A DNA stretch of 64,000 nucleotides, from assembly GCA_019454225.1 (NCBI GenBank), contig CP075370.1, positions 3,590,001 through 3,654,000 of the forward strand, written 5' to 3'. Source of the DNA: Paracoccaceae bacterium. GTDB lineage: Bacteria; Pseudomonadota; Alphaproteobacteria; Rhodobacterales; Rhodobacteraceae. The notes under the pieces were generated by a model. That model was given only the letters and a program-made list of their open reading frames with translations. It did not search any database and had not been told where the DNA came from. Position 1 is the first letter of the stretch. Each line of letters begins with the position of its first letter. This document shows, piece by piece, positions 54,195 through 64,000 of the stretch. A program made the translations under genes and the position numbers.

Positions 54195-55454
54195 ATGTCA
54201 GAGCTTGCTGTTTCAGGTGACGAACTCAAGCGGCTGCTCAAGGTGGCGGCAAAGTCCCCCCTCCCCTTCGCCTACTGCCCGGGGGCGGATGTCGACGGCG
54301 ACCTTTTCGCGCTGCACCGCACCAAATCGGCCGAAGTTCTGGCCAAGTCGCTGCGCGCCTCGGGCGATGGCAACAAGGTGGCCTTCGGGACCGCGGAGGT
54401 GGAGGGAAAGCTGGTGTCGCTGCGCTGCGACCGGCTGCTTCCGTCGCTGGCCAAGAAGCTGAAGAAGTTCCTCCGCGCCAATCAGGTCAACCGGAACGTC
54501 CGCATCCTGGACGCCGAGGGCAATGTCGTCGAAGAGGATATCGAGAACCTGCCCGACGACGGACAGGACGATCCGGCCGACGGCACCACCGAGATCGGAG
54601 ACGCAGGCGACCAGGGGCAGGATGCAGAGACTGCCGCGGCAGAGGCCGACCAGCCTTCGGCCGATCTGGCGGCCCGCGCAAAGGCGCTGCACCCGCATGT
54701 CATGGCCCTGCCTGAGCCGGCGGGACAGAAGGTCCGGCAGGCCTTTGCCCTGGCCGTCGGCATGATCCGGTCGGGCGATGACGCCGGCGCGGCTGCGGCG
54801 CTGGACCGGATCGAGGTCCTGCTCGACCGCCTGCCGCAGGCAGCGGCCGACGCGCCGCCGCCCGATCAGCCCGGATCGGCCACGCAGCGCAAGCTGCTGG
54901 ATGCCGCGGCTGCGCTGGCCGCGCGGATCAATGCCCTGGGCGATGCCGATGCCCGGGCCATGCTGATTGCGCAGATGAAGGATGTGGCCGGCGCGATCCG
55001 CGACGCCGCTGTGGAGCGGGCGATCAGCGGCATGAAGCAGGTGCAGCAGGACCTGCTGCTGGCCGAAGCCAATGCCAGTGCCCCGGCGCGGGACCCGCTC
55101 GATGTCTGGAACGCGGCGAAGGAGACCACGGATGCGGCCATCGGGGCGCTTCAGGCCCGACTGGGCCAGATTGCCGATCCCGATCTGGACCGCATTGCGC
55201 GGTTCGGCCTGAACGGCATCACCGAAGGCAACCAGACTGCGCTGATGAAGCACCTTCTCGACTATCGCCAGGCGAGCGGCGACGCACGCGCCAAGGCCGC
55301 GGCGGCACTGCGCAGCCAGGCGGCGGCCTATCGGTCGTTCCTGCAGTCGAACGAACTGATCGACCTGTGCGAGAAGAACCCCTTTGGCGTCGCGGTCGAT
55401 CTGCGGGGGCCGCTTGGCGCCGCCCTGACCGAGATCGAGCGGCTTGCCGCCTGA
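54195..55454 (+). CDS. Unknown protein, first gene of the large helical-protein cluster
   Basis: A 419-aa protein of unrecognised family. Residues 1-113 look like a compact alpha/beta domain (LKRLLKVAAKSPLPFAYCPG, KVAFGTAEVEGKLVSLRC, KKLKKFLRANQ, NVRILDAEGNVV). Residues 114-155 are an acidic low-complexity linker (DDGQDDPADGTTEIGDAGDQ). Residues 156-419 are Ala/Asp/Leu-rich helices, probably coiled. No signal peptide or membrane segment is seen. It begins the plus-strand series 54195-64000, with the next gene starting 49 bases later. Codon use is like its neighbours, so recent transfer is not indicated. Confidence 0.8.
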   Translation: MSELAVSGDELKRLLKVAAKSPLPFAYCPGADVDGDLFALHRTKSAEVLAKSLRASGDGNKVAFGTAEVEGKLVSLRCDRLLPSLAKKLKKFLRANQVNRNVRILDAEGNVVEEDIENLPDDGQDDPADGTTEIGDAGDQGQDAETAAAEADQPSADLAARAKALHPHVMALPEPAGQKVRQAFALAVGMIRSGDDAGAAAALDRIEVLLDRLPQAAADAPPPDQPGSATQRKLLDAAAALAARINALGDADARAMLIAQMKDVAGAIRDAAVERAISGMKQVQQDLLLAEANASAPARDPLDVWNAAKETTDAAIGALQARLGQIADPDLDRIARFGLNGITEGNQTALMKHLLDYRQASGDARAKAAAALRSQAAAYRSFLQSNELIDLCEKNPFGVAVDLRGPLGAALTEIERLAA

Positions 55455-55503
55455 GGGGCCGCCGGTGCCCCTGCCTGTCCAACCTGACTGATCGGAGTGA
55501 CCG

Positions 55504-58290
55504 ATGCCCGACCCCACGCTCGACCTCAAGACTTCGGTCACCGACTGGATCGCCGCCTTCAACCGCGTCAAGGGCTGGAAGACGCTGCGCCAGAATCCGG
55601 CAACGCCCAAGGCCGCCAACCTGCGGATGTCGCCCAAGAAACAGCTGGCGCAGGAGATGGCGGCCCGGCTGGCGGGTGGCGACAAGCAGGCGCTCGCCGA
55701 TGCCATCGACCGGGACGCCGCCACGCTGCAGGATCTGGAGCGTCAGGTCAGCGCGGCCCAGCCGGATGACGATATCGACGCCCTGAAGGCGCAACTGGAA
55801 CAGGTGCGCAGCGGCCTGTCCGAACAGCGCGCCAACCTTGCCATCGTAGAAAAGATCGAGAAGCGTCTGGCGCAGCTCGTGCTGGTCGAGGGGAACCTGC
55901 CCGCCGACCTGAAGCAGGTCCGCGAGGACAACGTCGCCCTGCGCGACCGTGCCGAGGCGTCTGGCCTTGACCTGGCGGCGATGGACCAGAAGGCGCTGGC
56001 CGACTTTCGCCGGGCGCATGTCGACATGCAGAAGAACATCGACAATGCGCGGGCCGAGGTGATGCCCGTCACCACCGACAAGACCGGCAAGACGCGCAAC
56101 TATGCCATCATCAACGCCAAGGAATACAAGATCCTGTACGGGTTGATGGAGCAGTCGCTGCTGGTGCTGCAAACCGACGGCGTCGACAGTGCCCGTCAGA
56201 AGTTATTCGAGGTGCAGGCCCTTCTGGGGGCCTATCGCACCGCGCGGACAGGCGGCACCGTGAATACCGCCCCACCCAGCGCGATCGAGGCGTCCGGGCT
56301 GGAAGGGCACTTCCAGATTGCCGACGAACTGATCGACGGCATGCTGCAGCGGGGCCTGACGGCGGCGGCAAACGGCCTGCGCGCGGCCTATGACAACCTG
56401 TTCCGTGATGTCGAGGCGGCCGTGCTGGCCCGTGAGGACGGGATCAAGGACGGCTACCTGGAGCTGATCGAGGTGATCGTGTCGGGGGCGCAGCGGGGCC
56501 GCGACGATGCGGTCGCCATCCAATCGGTTGTTCTGGGCATCAACACCGACATCGGAACGATGGTCGCCAACGGCCATGCCGTCGACGCCGAACGCGCGCT
56601 GGTGGCCGATTTCGTCAGGGATGCTGCGACCCAGACCCAGACCAGCGTCACGGTCGGCCGCGCGCATGAACTGGCCGCCGAGATCCGCCGGCGACTGAAG
56701 GCGGCGACGGATGCCGATCTGGCGCTGGAGCAGCTGGACCGCAGTGTGATGGCGGCCGATGTCGACGACCTTGACGCGCGGTTCGAGAAATTCTTCAGCC
56801 ACAACATCATCACCGGCAAGGTGCGCACCCAGACCGACACCAAGTCGCAGGAAAAGAAGAACGTCCGCGCCAACAAGGACATTCCCCGCGCGGCACTGGA
56901 CGAGATCGAACTTCAACTGATGGCGGCGCGGCAACTGCTTGACAGCGACTCGCTCGACGCGCTGCGCACGGCGGACGAATATGTGAGCGGAGTCAAGACC
57001 TTCATCACCACGATCGAGAATGCCCCCAAGGTGTATGTGCATCTGGAGGACGGGTTCAAGAAGATCGAAACGGCGATCAGGAAACTCGAAAGCGACTATC
57101 CGCTGTACCTGCCGGGACAGCGGCTGGACCTGCTGGCAAAGCTGGCCGAGCTGCGCGCGGGCCAGTACACCCGCCCGCAGGATTCCGTGCAATCCGACTC
57201 CGACCTGCTGAGCACCAGGGTCGATGACCTCAAGACCGAGATCAAGGGCCTTCAGACCCGCAAGCGCGCCCTGGCCAAGACCGCCGACGAAGTCGACACG
57301 CTGATCAAGGATATCGGCAAGGTGCTGAAGGGCAAGAAGGCCTTTGTCGACCTGAAGGGCTACTATGGCCCCGAGGTCGACCGGATGATGGAGGTCCGCG
57401 ACCAGATCGCCGAACGGACCGAACAGTCGCTGGACCAGGCCGAGGCTGCCATCACCACGATGAAGGCCACTCTTCTGCTGGCGCTGGACTCCGCGCGGGC
57501 CTGGGCCGCGAAGAAGGACCTGGACGACGCGGGGCTCAGTGCGCTGGACAGCCTGCTGACCAATGCCCGCGAGGGGCAGACCGCGCATGACGCCGACACC
57601 GCCGCCAAGGCGGACTATGAAGACGCGGTCAAGAAGCTGGGCAGCGACATCGAGTCGGTGAAGAAGAAACTCAAGCCTCTCAAGGCTGACCCCGGCGAGA
57701 TCCTGACGCTCGAGTCGCAACGGACGGCGCTCAAGGCCGATGTCGAGAAGACCGGCAAGTTCGCATCAGGGGTCGAGCGGGTGGCCGCCCTGCAGAGCCG
57801 CGTCATCCAGGTGCGCGACGATGCCGTCAGCGCCGCCGCGGTGCTGGATGCCGGACTGGCCGATGCGGCTGCGGCCTGCGTCGATGCGGTCGACGGCTTC
57901 GTCGCCAAGCTGGATACCTTTGTGGCCGATGTGATCGTGCCCGCCGGCCAGTCGGACAACGGCACTGACCTTGATGCCTATGACAGGGCCAAGATCACGG
58001 CCTTCTTCACCAAGCTGGCCCAGTCGGTCCGCGGCACCGGCACCGCTACGCTGAAAACCAACGCGGCCATCGTCGCCGACCGCGCCGCCGGCATCCCGGC
58101 CCGCAAGAAGGCGCGCGAAACGGCACTGGCGGAACTGCGCAAGCTGATGGCGCTGTTCGACGCGTTTCCGCCGATGCTGCACTTCCGCAGCCATCCGTTT
58201 GCGACGAAGGACGCAAGCACCCGCGCCGCCAGCGCCCGCCAGGCCATGCCCCGGCTGGAGATGCGCCTTCTGACCGCCATCAAGGATTGA
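55504..58290 (+). CDS. Unknown 928-aa helical/coiled-coil protein
   Basis: A 928-aa protein with no recognised domain. The start VTDWIAAFNRVKGWKTLRQNP is followed by long runs of charged, Ala/Leu/Gln-rich helix with heptad character (for example residues 65-125, LERQVSAAQPDDDIDALKAQ; 225-260; 575-625, VDDLKTEIKGLQTRKRALAK). No signal peptide, transmembrane segment, Walker motif or catalytic motif is visible. The C-terminus is basic (HFRSHPFATKDASTRAASAR). It probably serves as a structural or scaffold protein for the cluster. ATG 55504 follows GATCGGAGTG. 27 bases separate it from the next gene. Confidence 0.8.
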   Translation: MPDPTLDLKTSVTDWIAAFNRVKGWKTLRQNPATPKAANLRMSPKKQLAQEMAARLAGGDKQALADAIDRDAATLQDLERQVSAAQPDDDIDALKAQLEQVRSGLSEQRANLAIVEKIEKRLAQLVLVEGNLPADLKQVREDNVALRDRAEASGLDLAAMDQKALADFRRAHVDMQKNIDNARAEVMPVTTDKTGKTRNYAIINAKEYKILYGLMEQSLLVLQTDGVDSARQKLFEVQALLGAYRTARTGGTVNTAPPSAIEASGLEGHFQIADELIDGMLQRGLTAAANGLRAAYDNLFRDVEAAVLAREDGIKDGYLELIEVIVSGAQRGRDDAVAIQSVVLGINTDIGTMVANGHAVDAERALVADFVRDAATQTQTSVTVGRAHELAAEIRRRLKAATDADLALEQLDRSVMAADVDDLDARFEKFFSHNIITGKVRTQTDTKSQEKKNVRANKDIPRAALDEIELQLMAARQLLDSDSLDALRTADEYVSGVKTFITTIENAPKVYVHLEDGFKKIETAIRKLESDYPLYLPGQRLDLLAKLAELRAGQYTRPQDSVQSDSDLLSTRVDDLKTEIKGLQTRKRALAKTADEVDTLIKDIGKVLKGKKAFVDLKGYYGPEVDRMMEVRDQIAERTEQSLDQAEAAITTMKATLLLALDSARAWAAKKDLDDAGLSALDSLLTNAREGQTAHDADTAAKADYEDAVKKLGSDIESVKKKLKPLKADPGEILTLESQRTALKADVEKTGKFASGVERVAALQSRVIQVRDDAVSAAAVLDAGLADAAAACVDAVDGFVAKLDTFVADVIVPAGQSDNGTDLDAYDRAKITAFFTKLAQSVRGTGTATLKTNAAIVADRAAGIPARKKARETALAELRKLMALFDAFPPMLHFRSHPFATKDASTRAASARQAMPRLEMRLLTAIKD

Positions 58291-58317
58291 TCCGGCCCCC
58301 CGGAATTCGGAGAGACC

Positions 58318-61300
58318 ATGCCCTTTTCCCAACCTCATCATGACTGGCTGATAGATACCGTCAGCAGCGCGCCCGACTTCGATGCGATCCTTGCCCGGCA
58401 GGACGAACGCAACAGCAAGCTGGCCGAGATGCGAGACGAGATCACCGATCTTCAGGACGAGCTGATCGCCGCCTCGACCAACCTCAAGGTCGAATGGCCA
58501 CGGGACAAGTTTCTTGGCCTGATCGAACGCTCGAACCGGTCGATGGACTGGATGAACGGCGACCGCGACGACGAGGTGGACACCAAGCATGACCTGACCG
58601 GGAACTATCAGGTTGACGAGGCGGCCGCCAAAGAGGTCCAGAAGCTGCACGAGAAGCTGATCGAACTGCAGACACGGATGGAGAAGGCGGTCGATGCCGA
58701 CGGCAATCCGCTGTTCAAGCCGGCCGACATCACCCGCGAACTGTGGACGCCGCTGGTCCAGGCCGACGTCATCCCGTCGAACGCGGTCGCGGACAAGTAC
58801 AGCCAGGAGGCGCAGGTGTTCAACGGCGCCTGCGAGATCTACAAGAAGAAGCTTGAGGACTACTCCAAGAAAGCCTCGAAGCACGAGACAGCCAAGCGCG
58901 TCATCCGCATCGGCACGGATGTTGTCAGCCTGCTGGGAACGCTGGCCAGCGAATCCATCCGGCTGGAAAGCCTGACCGCGCAGGCGTCAAACATGAGCCG
59001 CGCCGAAAACCTTACGCTGGCGGCCGACAAGGCGGCATCGGCCGACGGCACGGCCACGGCAGAGCAGCTGGCCAACATCGACCGCATGACCGACATGAAG
59101 CAGCAGGCCCGCGAGGCGACGATGCAGATCGCGGCCGTCACGCTGGCCACCACGGTGATCAACGGGGGGTTTTCCGTCCTTGATGCCGCGCTGACCAACC
59201 CGGATGACAAGCGCAAGTCGACCTATGTCGCGGGGATCGCCAAGTCGATGTTCAACGCCCTTGGCGCGGCGGCGGCCAGCGGCATCTCGGTCTATTCGGC
59301 ACAGGTGACCGCCACCGATTCCGACAAGGCCTTTTCCCAGGCCTTCCAGACGCAGATGTCGATCGCATCCAAGTCGGTCCAGGCGATCCTCGGCGCTGGC
59401 AACGCAGGCTTCAGCCTGATGACCGCCGTGCAGAAATTCGCCGATGGCGACAAGGCAGGGGGCACCGCGGCGCTTCAGGATGTCATCGCCAGCGTCGCGG
59501 GCGCTGTCGGCGCCAGCATTTCCGCGGTCGATGTCAAGCGTGGCACCGTGGTGCAGGACGGCGTGACCACCACCTCGCTGGGCACCGAGGCGCAGTGGCA
59601 GCAGATCGGGGCCACGGTGCAGGCGGGCATCGCCGCCTCGGCCAACATTCCGGCCATCGCCAACCATATCTACGAGGTGGTGAAGTCGAACGGCGGCAAG
59701 ATGGACGTGAAGGTGATCATCGCCAATCTCGGCCTGTCGGCCATCAGCGGCGCCATGGCGGGCACGATGGGCGAGATCACCGGAAAGGTCTATTCCGTTC
59801 CGGCTGACGGAGAGATCGACCGCGGCACCGCCGAGGCGCTGTTCCAGAAGACCACCGTCGAGATGGAGATCTTCAACAGCAATGCCGACGGAGCCTCCAG
59901 TGTCGCGGCCAAGGCCGGTCCGCAGTTGAAGCCGACCGCGCCCACCGACGACCCGGCCCATGTCATGGAGCAGCGGATCCGGTTCGCCGAACAGGAGAAC
60001 GCGCGCAAGGCGGCGGCACTGGGCGACTTCAAGGCCTCGATGAATGACCCGGCCCGCCGCGACGAGTTCTTCAAGCAGATCGCCGATGCCAGCGACCGCG
60101 AGCTTGAGGTGCTGAACAAGCTGCTCGACGATGCCGGCAAGCCGCCGCAGGACCTCAGGACGGTCGAGGATGAACAGCGCGCGATGGCGGCGATGGACAA
60201 GCTGATCGCCGAGGCCAACCGCTGCAACATGATGTGGCAGGCGCTCGAGGTGATCACGGGTGTTGGCGCCACCGTGCTGGCCGCCGCCCTGCCTGGCGCA
60301 GGCATCGCCGTGGCCATCCAGAAGCTGCTGATCGACGCCACGACCCTGATGCGCAAGTCCATGCAACTGAACAAGTGGATGGACAACATGGCGCTGACCG
60401 TTGGCAACAGTTCGGTCTATGGCCCCGCCATCAACGGGCGGCTGAACTCGGCCCGTGTCCAGGTCAGCCTGCAGGTCCTGCGGGTGATCTATGACGTGAT
60501 CGGGCTGACCGCGGAATCGATCAAGCTGGCCGATGCCAGCGGCGCCAGCATGGGCGGCGGCATGGCGGCCGGCATCGCGCTGCAATCGGGCGCCACCATG
60601 GCCCGCGCGCTGACCGATTTCGCCTACAAGATGCACAAGGAGGCCGAGATCGAGGCGGGGTGGAAGCTGTACAAGATGGCCCTTGCCTCGCCCGGCGACC
60701 GCAAGAAGGCCCGCTCGGCGATGAAGTGGAATTCCACCCTGTCGAAATGCGTGATCGCCTATGGAATCGTCGTCGACGGTGATCCGATCGCCAAGGAGGT
60801 CGGGCGCAGTTGCGGCATCACGCCCGAGGTTCTGGCCGACCAGAAGAATGTCTGCCCCAAGGTGGTCACCTATTTCGAAACGCTCTACAGCGATGACCCC
60901 AAGGTGCTGAAACGGGTGCCCATCCCGCAGAAATGGCATCCGGGAACGCCCGTGCCGACGCTGGTCAGCTGGCTGCGCTTCAAGGCCGCGGCCACCGCCC
61001 GGGCCACTCCGCCGCTGGCCGCCGCCTCGGCCAAGACACCCGGCATCGACGGCGCGTTGGGCAGGCTGGTCGGGGTGTTGGGCCCGGATGCCGACTATGC
61101 CGCAACCCGCGATGCCCGGTTCCCGGAATACGACGCGACAAACCTTGCGCGCCAGACCACCGACTATGACGAGTTTCTGGACGATGTCGATGAGGCCGCC
61201 AGGGCGGTGATCACGCAGCTCCGGGCCTATCAGCCGGTCAACGCCGACCCCGCCGACGGCGACGACTGGACCGGTGGCACGGCCCACAAGGAATTCGTCG

Positions 61301-61500
61301 CCATTGTCGAAAGCCTGACCGCGCAGGTCCAGATGATTCAGGGTGAATGCGCCAACGACAGGGAACGCCATGCGGCGTTCAAGGAACAGCAGCAGGCGAT
61401 TGCCGATGCATTGGCGGGCGAGGACGATGACGGCGACGTCGCCGACGACGATGCAGGCTATGACGCCGACGACGAGGCTTCTGGCGGCCGCAGAAGATAA
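58318..61500 (+). CDS. Unknown 1060-aa helical protein with hydrophobic segments
   Basis: A 1060-aa protein of no recognised family. N-terminus HHDWLIDTVSSAPDFDAILARQ leads into charged helices (20-190). Ala/Gly-rich hydrophobic stretches occur near residues 265-292, 302-330, 383-405 and 640-670 (for example ITGVGATVLAAALPGAGIAVAI), which could insert in a membrane or pack in a helical bundle. The rest is charged helix, and the C-terminus is an acidic tail (EDDDGDVADDDAGYDADD). No signal peptide is seen. The mix of long amphipathic and hydrophobic helices is reminiscent of pore-forming or delivery proteins, but this is only an impression. ATG 58318 follows GGAGAG. Confidence 0.8.
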   Translation: MPFSQPHHDWLIDTVSSAPDFDAILARQDERNSKLAEMRDEITDLQDELIAASTNLKVEWPRDKFLGLIERSNRSMDWMNGDRDDEVDTKHDLTGNYQVDEAAAKEVQKLHEKLIELQTRMEKAVDADGNPLFKPADITRELWTPLVQADVIPSNAVADKYSQEAQVFNGACEIYKKKLEDYSKKASKHETAKRVIRIGTDVVSLLGTLASESIRLESLTAQASNMSRAENLTLAADKAASADGTATAEQLANIDRMTDMKQQAREATMQIAAVTLATTVINGGFSVLDAALTNPDDKRKSTYVAGIAKSMFNALGAAAASGISVYSAQVTATDSDKAFSQAFQTQMSIASKSVQAILGAGNAGFSLMTAVQKFADGDKAGGTAALQDVIASVAGAVGASISAVDVKRGTVVQDGVTTTSLGTEAQWQQIGATVQAGIAASANIPAIANHIYEVVKSNGGKMDVKVIIANLGLSAISGAMAGTMGEITGKVYSVPADGEIDRGTAEALFQKTTVEMEIFNSNADGASSVAAKAGPQLKPTAPTDDPAHVMEQRIRFAEQENARKAAALGDFKASMNDPARRDEFFKQIADASDRELEVLNKLLDDAGKPPQDLRTVEDEQRAMAAMDKLIAEANRCNMMWQALEVITGVGATVLAAALPGAGIAVAIQKLLIDATTLMRKSMQLNKWMDNMALTVGNSSVYGPAINGRLNSARVQVSLQVLRVIYDVIGLTAESIKLADASGASMGGGMAAGIALQSGATMARALTDFAYKMHKEAEIEAGWKLYKMALASPGDRKKARSAMKWNSTLSKCVIAYGIVVDGDPIAKEVGRSCGITPEVLADQKNVCPKVVTYFETLYSDDPKVLKRVPIPQKWHPGTPVPTLVSWLRFKAAATARATPPLAAASAKTPGIDGALGRLVGVLGPDADYAATRDARFPEYDATNLARQTTDYDEFLDDVDEAARAVITQLRAYQPVNADPADGDDWTGGTAHKEFVAIVESLTAQVQMIQGECANDRERHAAFKEQQQAIADALAGEDDDGDVADDDAGYDADDEASGGRRR

Positions 61501-61593
61501 GGCGCGGCAGGCGGCACCGGCGAATACGCAGGGGACAACTGTCTTGACGACACCCGCGCTGCCGCGTTCCAATGTTGCCCGAAAGGAACCCGC

Positions 61594-61863
61594 ATGTCCT
61601 TCTGGAAACGCCTCTTCGGCGCCAAACCTGACGCAGCCGATGCCGCCCCCGCCCCCGGCGAGGATTACAACGGCTTCCGCATCACCCCCACCCCGATCCG
61701 CGAGGGCGGGCAGTTCCGGGTCTCGGCCCGCATCGAGAAGGATGGGCGCCGCCACGACCTGATCCGCGCCGACACCATGGCCTCGGCCGACGAGGCCGCC
61801 GCCGCCTCGCTGCGCAAGGCGCGCCAGATCATCGACGAACAGGGCGACCGGTTGTTCGCATAG
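61594..61863 (+). CDS. HlyU-family protein
   Basis: An 89-aa protein: MSFWKRLFGAKPD, a short Ala/Pro linker, EDYNGFRITPTPIREGGQFRVSARIEKDG and RHDLIRADTMASADEAAAASLRKARQIIDEQG. This matches the HlyU (PF10115) family as found in alphaproteobacteria. Despite the name, this group is a small beta-rich domain of uncertain role and is not the ArsR-type HlyU of vibrios. It lies 93 bases after one unknown large gene and 121 before the next. A TTGACG/TCCAAT pair upstream (61544-61573) may be its own promoter. Confidence 0.85.
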   Translation: MSFWKRLFGAKPDAADAAPAPGEDYNGFRITPTPIREGGQFRVSARIEKDGRRHDLIRADTMASADEAAAASLRKARQIIDEQGDRLFA

Positions 61864-61984
61864 GGCCTCGCGGTTCCTCGATCCGCGCCGAACCGGCACC
61901 ACCCTGCCCGCCAAAACAATGCAGACAGCCGCCCTGCGCTCGCCTAGAGTGCATATCGGCATTCATACGTCGGGATTCGTGACC

Positions 61985-64000
61985 ATGGCCGGGGAAAACC
62001 TGACCGAGCAGCAGAAAGCCTTCCTCCAGAAGTATCTGAAGCTCAGTTTCTTCAGCAAGAGCAGGGACAAGGCGGTCACCCAGGCCTATGAGCGCTACCT
62101 GCCTGTCGAGGCGGAGTTCAAGGAGCAGATGCTGCTGCTGCCCGGCGAGGAACCGCGGGTCCAGGCGCTTGGCGGCCGGTCGGCACCGGCCATGAAACTG
62201 AAGAACGACGGCAAGTTCGACGAAGCCGCGCAGGCACTGACGCCCCTGATCCAGGAGGCGCGAAACCTGGGCACCACGCTGACACGCGAGCATCTCTCGG
62301 CCGTGCAGCGATACCAGACGGCGTTCAACACCCTGCCGCCGAACGATCCGCAGGCGCTTGTCATCGCCAACCAGGCAAGCGGCGCGCTGATCGCCCTGCC
62401 AGCCGCCGTTCCGGCGGCAATCCGCACGCTTGAACAGGCGACGCTGTCGTCAACCACGCGCGCCGGCGAGATTCGTCAGGCCCATTCACAGGCTGCGCAG
62501 GCCTATCGGGACAGCTTGCTGGGACTGCCCGTCGCGGACGGCCGCGTGGGTGGCATCATCGGCCGGGCCGCAGGCCCGCTCGCGGTCACCGTATTGGCCG
62601 ACATGCCCGCCGCAGTCATCACGCTTGGCACGCTCCAGCAGGAATGCGCGCAGCTGAAGATCACCATCGCCGGGGACAAGACCGCGCTTCTGCAGGAACT
62701 GTCGCGGCTGGTCGACCCGGTGGGCGCCTCACCGAATGAACTGCGCGAGCTTGGGCGGCTGCGTGATGCGGCAACGCTTGCCATGGGTGCCGACTGGCCC
62801 GCCCCAGACGACTTTGCCGCCGCGCGCAAGGCCATGGCAGCTTTGCAAACGATGATCCGCACGGTTGCCCAGGTCGCGCGCCTGCCCGGCGGAACTGCGA
62901 CCAAGGCCCGCGAGACCATGGCGCAGTTCGATAGGGTCCTCGGCGGTCTGGAACTGACACCCCAGGTTGTCGCAGACGCCCGTACCAACCGGACCCGGGC
63001 CGAGAATGACGTGGCGCAGGCGACGAGCGACCTGGACGACGCGGAAGCGCTGCCGCAGGACACGCCCGAGGAAGTCCGCCAGCGCAACGAGGCGATCCGG
63101 CTTGCCGAGGAGGCCCTGCGCCTGGCAAACCAGCAGCTTCTCACGGTCACCGAGCGGTCGAATGCGATCCTCGGAAAGAAGATGCTGACCGACGCCCTGA
63201 CCTTCGGCGCGCTGTCACCCGACGCAGGACGTCCGCTGCCCGACAACGCGGCGCAGAAGATCATCGAGGCTTTCGGCAGTCAGCCCGATATCGCAAAGAC
63301 CGCGCTTGACCTCGCGCAGCGCTCGAAGGATCCGGATACGCTGGCCAATGCCTTGCCGATGATCTGCGGCAGGGTCGGGGACTGCTTCGAGCAGGACGGA
63401 TCCCAGTTCTCCAGCCCGGAGTTTGCGCGCAGCTATGGTGCGGGCCTTCTGAAGCAGGGCGATTTCCTGGGCGGCACCTATTTCGACGACCTCGAGGACT
63501 ATCTCGACAACGGCGGCCAGTTCGAGGCCAGCGTGATCGGCTCCGGCGATGGGCTTGAGGAACGCGAGATCACCGGCAATCGCAGCCGGGCCCTGGCGGG
63601 GGCGCTGCTTGACGTCAATGGCGAACTCGACCTCGGCAGCGCCGATGCGCAGAAGGTGATGCAGCAGCTCAAGTTCTCGCCCGACGCCGCGCTCAACCCG
63701 ACGCCGGTGTTGACGCAGCACATGATGCACACGTTCGACCAGCTTGCGCAGGGCGACAATGCGCTGCAGGCCGCCACGCTGATCAATGGCATCACGGCGC
63801 CGACCGGTCTGCCCTCGTCCGATCTGGTCGGGCTTGCCATGGGCAACGGAACCGGGGGAAGCGTCACCGATGAAGAGACGCGCACCGCCGTCCTGAAATC
63901 GCTGATGACACCGGTGGACCAGGGCCCAGTGGGTTCATGCTTCACGACGGCACCAACCCGCCGCTTCCGCGAGGAGGACCCGATCGGCGCACTGCGCGGC
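61985..64000 (+). CDS. Unknown large protein with a C-terminal papain-like Gln/Cys motif, cut by the window
   Basis: Open for 672 codons to the window edge; incomplete at the 3' end. N-terminus LTEQQKAFLQKYLKLSFF is followed by Ala/Leu/Gln-rich helical sequence (about 60-430), then a less repetitive region (440-630, for example GRVGDCFEQDGSQFSSPEFA). At residues 644-655 it reads VDQGPVGSCFTT. The Gln646-to-Cys652 spacing equals that of the oxyanion-hole Gln and catalytic Cys of papain-fold (C1-like) peptidases, whose bacterial form is DQGxxGSC. The catalytic His and Asn would lie beyond the window. No signal peptide. It resembles its neighbours in composition, so it belongs with the unknown cluster. 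Confidence 0.78.
   Translation, partial: MAGENLTEQQKAFLQKYLKLSFFSKSRDKAVTQAYERYLPVEAEFKEQMLLLPGEEPRVQALGGRSAPAMKLKNDGKFDEAAQALTPLIQEARNLGTTLTREHLSAVQRYQTAFNTLPPNDPQALVIANQASGALIALPAAVPAAIRTLEQATLSSTTRAGEIRQAHSQAAQAYRDSLLGLPVADGRVGGIIGRAAGPLAVTVLADMPAAVITLGTLQQECAQLKITIAGDKTALLQELSRLVDPVGASPNELRELGRLRDAATLAMGADWPAPDDFAAARKAMAALQTMIRTVAQVARLPGGTATKARETMAQFDRVLGGLELTPQVVADARTNRTRAENDVAQATSDLDDAEALPQDTPEEVRQRNEAIRLAEEALRLANQQLLTVTERSNAILGKKMLTDALTFGALSPDAGRPLPDNAAQKIIEAFGSQPDIAKTALDLAQRSKDPDTLANALPMICGRVGDCFEQDGSQFSSPEFARSYGAGLLKQGDFLGGTYFDDLEDYLDNGGQFEASVIGSGDGLEEREITGNRSRALAGALLDVNGELDLGSADAQKVMQQLKFSPDAALNPTPVLTQHMMHTFDQLAQGDNALQAATLINGITAPTGLPSSDLVGLAMGNGTGGSVTDEETRTAVLKSLMTPVDQGPVGSCFTTAPTRRFREEDPIGALRG

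What the first reader, a model, noticed from the sequence alone, without database searches (positions are those of the whole stretch)
54195..64000. Cluster of giant helical proteins of unknown family
Seen: four same-strand genes of 419, 928, 1060 and at least 672 aa with short gaps (49 and 27 bases between the first three), almost all helical and Ala/Gln/Asp-rich, with acidic linkers or tails, and no recognisable domain except a possible protease motif in the fourth. They carry neither transport nor metabolic signatures. Inference: conserved spacing and similar composition suggest a multi-protein assembly, such as a delivery, surface or defence apparatus, or a protease with its scaffolds. This is the strongest candidate for an undescribed system in the window.
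Basis: partly seen in the sequence, partly recalled or inferred. Interest (0 to 1): 0.8.

Follow-up and report, generated by a model that had tools for sequence, protein, structure and literature searches.

The report
New type VI secretion delivery-domain cluster
The giant helical proteins appear to be cargo, and the small one an adaptor, for a bacterial spear (type VI secretion system) encoded elsewhere in this genome; they expose an undescribed domain that labels a whole arsenal of toxin-like proteins in Rhodobacteraceae, whose spears have no described function.

Summary
The genes are real. A–B–C (419, 928, 1060 aa) recur in this order in five other genera while the neighbours change. The fourth gene, D (1,157 aa in full), is separate: hlyU lies between it and C.

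A opens with an undescribed ~120-aa alpha/beta domain ("ND", pLDDT ~97). ND occurs 14 times in this genome, mostly at protein N-termini. Here and in relatives it is fused to unrelated toxin-like C-termini (cysteine protease, metalloprotease-like, VanY, endonuclease). Two copies flank this genome's T6SS cluster.

Of 248 family genomes, 24 have ND; 23 of these have TssK (58/248 overall; P≈1e-15). C occurs in 12, all ND+ and TssK+.

D keeps papain-like Gln/Cys/His/Asn residues in 7/7 homologues, each followed by an E-like gene (immunity candidate). Large ND-free proteins beside A-like genes (C, D, kinases, metalloproteases) often start with a short shared motif (16/37 against 1/698 other genes).

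Best explanation: ND is a T6SS delivery domain, used in cis or in an adaptor (A) that loads motif-bearing cargo. Export, A–cargo binding and toxicity are inferred, not shown. It works like RIX or PIX but matches no Pfam or NCBIfam model: a new variant of a known kind.

The parts
54195..55454 (+). Gene A, 419 aa: proposed T6SS adaptor (ND domain + acidic linker + helical half)
   Evidence: ORF; ND profile match E 9e-49; AlphaFold pLDDT 89; 29-member A-like cluster
54195..54575 (+). ND domain of gene A (proposed delivery domain), ~residues 1-127
   Evidence: 14 copies in the genome; alignment A3; co-occurrence with T6SS
55504..58290 (+). Gene B, 928 aa helical; cargo or scaffold encoded directly before C
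   Evidence: Same position in Szabonella, Sulfitobacter, Gemmobacter, G155, G118; diverged B' elsewhere
58318..61500 (+). Gene C, 1060 aa helical; proposed trans cargo
   Evidence: Family in 12/248 genomes, all ND+ and TssK+; alignment A4
58318..58353 (+). N-terminal motif of C (MPFSQPHHDWLI), proposed docking tag for A
   Evidence: Motif enriched in A-adjacent large proteins
61594..61863 (+). hlyU-family regulator gene (89 aa) separating C from D; probably not part of the unit
   Evidence: PF10115 E 7e-29
61919..64000 (+). Gene D (5' part; 1,157 aa in full, ends at G000:C1:3655392; likely start 61985): proposed papain-like cysteine-protease effector
   Evidence: Invariant Gln, Cys, His, Asn/Asp in 7 homologues; followed by an E homologue in 7/7
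61985..62068 (+). N-terminal motif of D (MAGENLTEQQKAFLQKYLK...), proposed docking tag for adaptor X, which lies outside the window
   Evidence: X at G000:C1:3655898-3657500, minus strand
63938..63940 (+). Codon of the putative catalytic Cys of D (QGPVGSCF)
   Evidence: Alignments

Best explanation
Gene A is an adaptor of the bacterium's type VI secretion system. Its N-terminal ND domain is a secretion/loading domain. In other proteins of this genome ND is fused directly to a toxic C-terminus (cis delivery). In A-like proteins it is fused to a helical half that captures large cargo proteins encoded next to it, which lack ND and instead start with a short motif (trans delivery: C, D and, elsewhere, kinases and metalloproteases; B is probably cargo or a scaffold for C). 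D is a papain-like cysteine-protease effector, the 152-aa gene after it is its immunity or chaperone partner, and the converging A-like gene X is its adaptor. Shown by computation: the ND family and its N-terminal position, co-occurrence with T6SS, position beside tssA-tssB-tssC-hcp, conserved gene modules, catalytic residues, the shared cargo motif. Inferred: that the T6SS machine recognises ND, that A-like proteins bind the motif, that the cargo is injected, and what B and C do in the target.
For: ND occurs 14 times in the genome in unrelated fusions. Two ND genes lie divergent from tssA-tssB-tssC-hcp-tagJ. Among 248 family genomes 24 have ND and 23 of these have TssK, against 58/248 overall, Fisher P 1e-15. 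In 12 of 17 genomes with ND and tssK on one contig the nearest pair is 19-31 kb apart. On an annotated Leisingera plasmid an ND 'hypothetical protein' is the divergent neighbour of tssA-H. C is confined to ND+ TssK+ genomes, 12/12. 7/7 D homologues are followed by an E homologue. The same protease families appear either with ND or, without ND, with the N-terminal motif beside an A-like gene: D2 against D, and ND-metalloproteases against motif-metalloproteases in T6SS clusters of two genera, with a similar A-like/metalloprotease/CpXC unit in another family (G286). Motif in 16/37 large A-adjacent proteins against 1/698 other genes, P 7e-22.
Against: No secretion, binding or toxicity experiment exists. 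One ND genome (G027) has neither TssK nor TssC. C has no conserved immunity gene beside it, and no toxin domain or fold could be recognised in it. One B-C pair (G101) has no ND gene beside it. The A-B-C locus lies 2.7 Mb from the T6SS. The motif was written after seeing several of the proteins, homologous C proteins are not independent, and most B proteins of the close type lack it. Co-occurrence is not corrected for phylogeny, although genomes are one per genus.
Confidence: 0.72

Rival explanations
1. ND is a T6SS-associated domain that works inside the producing cell (assembly, anchoring or regulation of the machine), and A-B-C is a large intracellular T6SS accessory complex rather than injected cargo.
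For: ND genes sit in T6SS clusters beside tssA; stand-alone ND proteins of 113-144 aa exist; no immunity gene accompanies A-B-C; C matches no toxin family.
Against: ND is also fused to endonuclease, VanY and protease C-termini, many far from the T6SS and followed by small partner genes, which fits exported effectors better than machine parts.
Confidence: 0.17
2. A-B-C is an unrelated helical system (for example surface or toxin complex) that happens to use an ND-like protein; its occurrence in T6SS genomes reflects shared ancestry or shared mobile islands.
For: A-B-C is 2.7 Mb from the T6SS; only 12 of 24 ND genomes have C; one B-C pair lacks a neighbouring ND gene.
Against: All 12 C genomes are ND+ and TssK+, P 3e-14 and 1e-8; C shares its N-terminal motif with kinases that also sit beside A-like genes.
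Confidence: 0.08
3. Ordinary: ND is a divergent member of an already published T6SS delivery domain (MIX, FIX, PIX or WHIX), so the finding is only a new member.
For: Same layout and logic as those classes (PMC10435454, PMC12135965); published profiles other than those in Pfam/NCBIfam could not be run here.
Against: No Pfam or NCBIfam hit for A; published descriptions that I could read place these domains in other lineages, and RIX differs in length and composition.
Confidence: 0.12

Closest known systems
RIX-domain polymorphic T6SS effectors and secreted adaptors (PMC10435454)
   Same: N-terminal domain shared by diverse toxins; also present in adaptors needed by a separately encoded effector; many orphan genes; restricted to a few bacterial families
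   Different: RIX is a ~55-aa arginine-rich domain of Vibrionaceae and Moritellaceae. ND is ~120 aa, 5% Arg and 10% Lys, alpha/beta, found in Rhodobacteraceae and one other alphaproteobacterial family
MIX, FIX, PIX and WHIX domains (PMC12135965, PMC10673891; PIX only as cited there and in PMC12288458)
   Same: Domains that define polymorphic T6SS effector classes and mediate loading; MIX also occurs as a stand-alone gene
   Different: ND gives no Pfam or NCBIfam hit; profiles of these domains were not at hand for direct comparison
T6SS adaptor families DUF4123, DUF2169 and DUF1795
   Same: Encoded next to the effector; known to bring effectors to the spike
   Different: A matches none of them in Pfam and shares its own domain with cis effectors
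Papain/calpain-like cysteine peptidases
   Same: Order Gln, Cys (QGxVGSC), His, then AD[TS]NWG, like papain's Asn-Ser-Trp-Gly (from general knowledge)
   Different: No Pfam match and no PDB sequence match; divergent family, fold not tested
Roseobacter T6SS with the fused sheath protein TssCL (PMC9515649)
   Same: This genome has a TssB-TssC fusion of the same kind and a similar cluster layout
   Different: That study reports no described function for these systems; ND offers a candidate effector class

Membership tests
T6SS delivery-domain class (the general kind) | Shared domain at the N-terminus of proteins with diverse, unrelated C-termini, several of them toxic-type | tested here: met
   64 ND proteins; ND begins within 40 residues of the called start in 55 and within 110 in 63; five C-terminal clusters and 13 singletons; PF13930 and PF02557 matches
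T6SS delivery-domain class (the general kind) | Found almost only in genomes that encode a T6SS | tested here: met
   23 of 24 ND genomes of the family have TssK, 58 of 248 overall
T6SS delivery-domain class (the general kind) | Necessary and sufficient for T6SS-dependent secretion | not testable with these tools
   needs a secretion assay
RIX | ~55-aa arginine-rich domain of Vibrionaceae/Moritellaceae | tested here: not met
   ND is ~120 aa with 5.4% Arg and alphaproteobacterial
MIX / FIX / PIX / WHIX | Match to the published profile | not tested
   profiles not at hand; general Pfam and NCBIfam scans gave no hit for A
T6SS adaptors DUF4123, DUF2169, DUF1795 | Pfam match | tested here: not met
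   no Pfam family at E<=1 for A
Papain-like cysteine peptidase | Conserved Gln, Cys, His and Asn/Asp in this order | tested here: met
   invariant in 7 diverged homologues
Papain-like cysteine peptidase | Papain fold | not tested
Effector-immunity pair (D-E) | Small gene directly downstream that is conserved with the toxin | tested here: met
   7 of 7 D homologues are followed by an E homologue
Effector-immunity pair (D-E) | E protects against D | not testable with these tools
   needs co-expression

The most novel reading that the evidence does not exclude
A two-tier T6SS loading code in Alphaproteobacteria: one new domain (ND) is used in cis on effectors or on adaptors whose second half reads a short N-terminal tag on giant trans cargo (helical B-C complex, protein kinases, proteases), and toxin families move between the cis and the trans format.
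Probability: 0.5. Interest if true: 0.8.

Novelty: new variant of a known kind. Interest (0 to 1): 0.68.

Why it matters
Roseobacter T6SS are reported to have no described function (PMC9515649). ND gives a sequence handle that lists candidate effectors genome by genome (14 ND copies here), many far from any T6SS gene and annotated as hypothetical. It predicts protein kinases and papain-like proteases as T6SS cargo, and a cis/trans loading rule that simple deletions can test. It would add a second lineage-restricted T6SS secretion domain of the sort proposed for RIX.

Tried and rejected
Pfam, NCBIfam, PADLOC and PHROGs scans of the window proteins gave only chance-level or coiled-coil hits, such as SMC-like matches of B, so no defence system is indicated. 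PDB profile searches with the protease found nothing. Foldseek and VIA-align with the model of A: no match at E<=0.001, and the VIA list was filled by the helical half, so the ND fold was barely tested and its novelty is unproven. Model of C: pLDDT 64, no meaningful match. A search for D in plasmids found nothing. A single four-gene operon was rejected: hlyU intervenes and D travels without A-B-C. The GH19 (chitinase/lysozyme-like) reading of the 607-aa ND protein was made by eye and is not confirmed by Pfam, so it is not counted as evidence; likewise the metalloprotease reading rests on a HEVGHAVDD motif only (no Pfam hit).

Full report
WHAT IS THERE. The window is G000:C1:3590001-3654000 of a one-contig 4.16-Mb genome; its named relatives are Szabonella, Sulfitobacter, Gemmobacter, Leisingera and Qingshengfaniella. 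Genes A, B and C are as described. Between C and the fourth gene lies hlyU (61594-61863; PF10115, E 7e-29). The fourth gene, D, runs on to G000:C1:3655392 (1,157 aa, or 1,135 from the ATG at 61985). It is followed by E (152 aa) and, on the other strand, by X (533 aa).

THE ND DOMAIN. X and the paralogue of D (D2, 1,379 aa, 33% identical to D) begin with a domain related to the N-terminus of A. A profile of it finds 14 copies in this genome at E 1e-5 or better: stand-alone (132 aa), tandem (1,479-aa protein), and at the N-termini of proteins that otherwise share little. AlphaFold gives residues 4-120 of A as a confident alpha/beta unit (order H-E-E-H-E-E-H-E-E, pLDDT about 97 in most of it), then a disordered acidic linker and a confident helical half. 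No Pfam, NCBIfam or PHROGs family matches A. Fold comparison was inconclusive for ND, because the helical half filled the hit list.

LINK TO TYPE VI SECRETION. Two ND genes (361 and 132 aa; 929.8-931.3 kb) lie divergent from tssA, tssB, tssC, hcp (PF05638), tagJ, tssE and tssF, with VgrG (PF05954) and a TssB-TssC fusion (PF05591 + PF05943) downstream (tssA, tssB, tssC, tagJ, tssE and tssF named from sequence by eye). Among 248 genomes of the family, one per genus, ND is found in 24 and TssK (PF05936) in 58; 23 of the 24 have TssK (Fisher P 1.1e-15). On contigs holding both, the nearest ND gene is 19-31 kb from tssK in 12 of 17 genomes. In the class-wide sample of 385, ND appears strongly in one other family (G286, six matches), which has a TssC, and marginally (E 7e-4) in G610, where no TssC was found. 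In annotated Leisingera M658 an ND 'hypothetical protein' is the immediate divergent neighbour of tssA-tssB-tssC-hcp-tagJ-tssE-tssF-tssG-tssH.

A POLYMORPHIC ARSENAL. The 64 ND proteins collected carry C-termini of several kinds: 29 A-like helical; six with a 'HEVGHAVDD'-type motif (metalloprotease-like by eye, no Pfam hit); five D2-like cysteine proteases; three sharing an 'HGP' C-terminus; four short ones; and singletons including VanY (PF02557, at the cut-off) and Endonuclease_NS_2 (PF13930, E 3e-13). ND metalloprotease-like proteins are followed by a CpXC gene (PF14353) in L105 and on two annotated Leisingera plasmids. D and its six homologues keep QGxVGSCF, a His, and AD[TS]NWG without exception, and each is followed directly by an E homologue.

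A-B-C AND TRANS CARGO. A-B-C occurs in the same order in Szabonella, Sulfitobacter, Gemmobacter straminiformis, G155 and G118 with different neighbours. Diverged loci with A-like, B' and C genes occur in G068, G262, G254, G263, G113 and G220; B and B' are connected by BLAST. In G132 the unit is apparently split between two contig ends, and in G101 B'-C stand without an adjacent ND gene. C is confined to genomes with ND and TssK (12 of 12; P 3e-14 against ND, 1e-8 against TssK). Other A-like genes stand beside Ser/Thr kinases (PF00069, E 3e-25; three genera), beside D (X), or in T6SS clusters that also hold a 1,700-aa metalloprotease-like protein. These neighbours lack ND. Many begin instead with a short motif, roughly M-x(0-7)-[LFIVMY]-[TSDN]-x2-[QEH]-x2-[WF]-[LIVM]: 16 of 37 large A-adjacent proteins against 1 of 698 other genes (a duplicate copy of C was removed from the background of 699, and two of the remaining three background hits are the metalloprotease-like cargo; the Fisher value was computed with one background hit). 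The pattern was written after viewing several of these proteins, so the P value is optimistic. The same toxin family occurs either with ND (D2; the ND metalloproteases) or with the motif beside an A-like gene (D; the metalloproteases of G068 and G005, and roughly G286). This exchange is the best evidence that ND and 'motif plus adaptor' do the same job.

MECHANISM. Proposed: ND binds an exported tube or spike part. A-like adaptors link ND to cargo whose N-terminal motif they grip. The T6SS then carries A with B and C, and X with D, into a neighbouring cell, where D cuts proteins while E protects kin. The domain family, motif, modules and associations are shown. Binding, export and toxicity are inferred. 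What B and C do is unknown; C has a hydrophobic segment (around residue 650) that could insert in membranes, but the structure model is weak and no immunity gene accompanies C, so a non-bacterial target or a structural role is possible.

COMPARISON. The logic matches RIX, which marks cis effectors and also secreted adaptors (PMC10435454), and the classes MIX, FIX, PIX and WHIX (PMC12135965; PMC10673891; PMC12288458). ND differs from RIX in length, composition and hosts. The others could not be compared profile to profile. Roseobacter T6SS are reported to have no described function (PMC9515649).

VERDICT. Not an undescribed apparatus, but apparently an undescribed delivery domain and loading scheme of a known apparatus: a new variant of a known kind.

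Noticed in passing
L026:3575-6643 (-); L066:9580-12666; L072:2742-5837: Giant proteins with a Ser/Thr kinase domain (PF00069 in L026) encoded beside ND adaptors: candidate kinase effectors of a T6SS.
   Followed up: partly
L035:4963-9525 (G000:C1:943463-948025): TssB-TssC fusion of 1,520 aa with a very long repetitive Ala/Pro-rich linker, resembling the published roseobacter TssCL; role unknown.
   Followed up: no
L071, L076, L081, L087, L088, L089, L093, L109, L140: T6SS clusters recurrently contain TolQ/ExbB-like, ExbD-like, DUF4384-type and caspase-family genes next to the ND gene.
   Followed up: no
window 55330-55454 and 58150-58290 (C-terminal ends of A and B): A-like and B-family proteins share a C-terminal ending around a '[NH]PF' motif, hinting at a common C-terminal element.
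   Followed up: no
L105:2020-2727; L135:11881-12600; L138:20594-21259; L139:20540-21244: CpXC-type genes directly after ND- or motif-bearing metalloprotease-like proteins: a candidate immunity family.
   Followed up: partly
L032:7190-13141 (-): A-like gene next to a 127-aa gene and a large protein with a 'HSLARHGPEVDDTLLLNRL' C-terminus, resembling RNase-type polymorphic toxins by eye.
   Followed up: no
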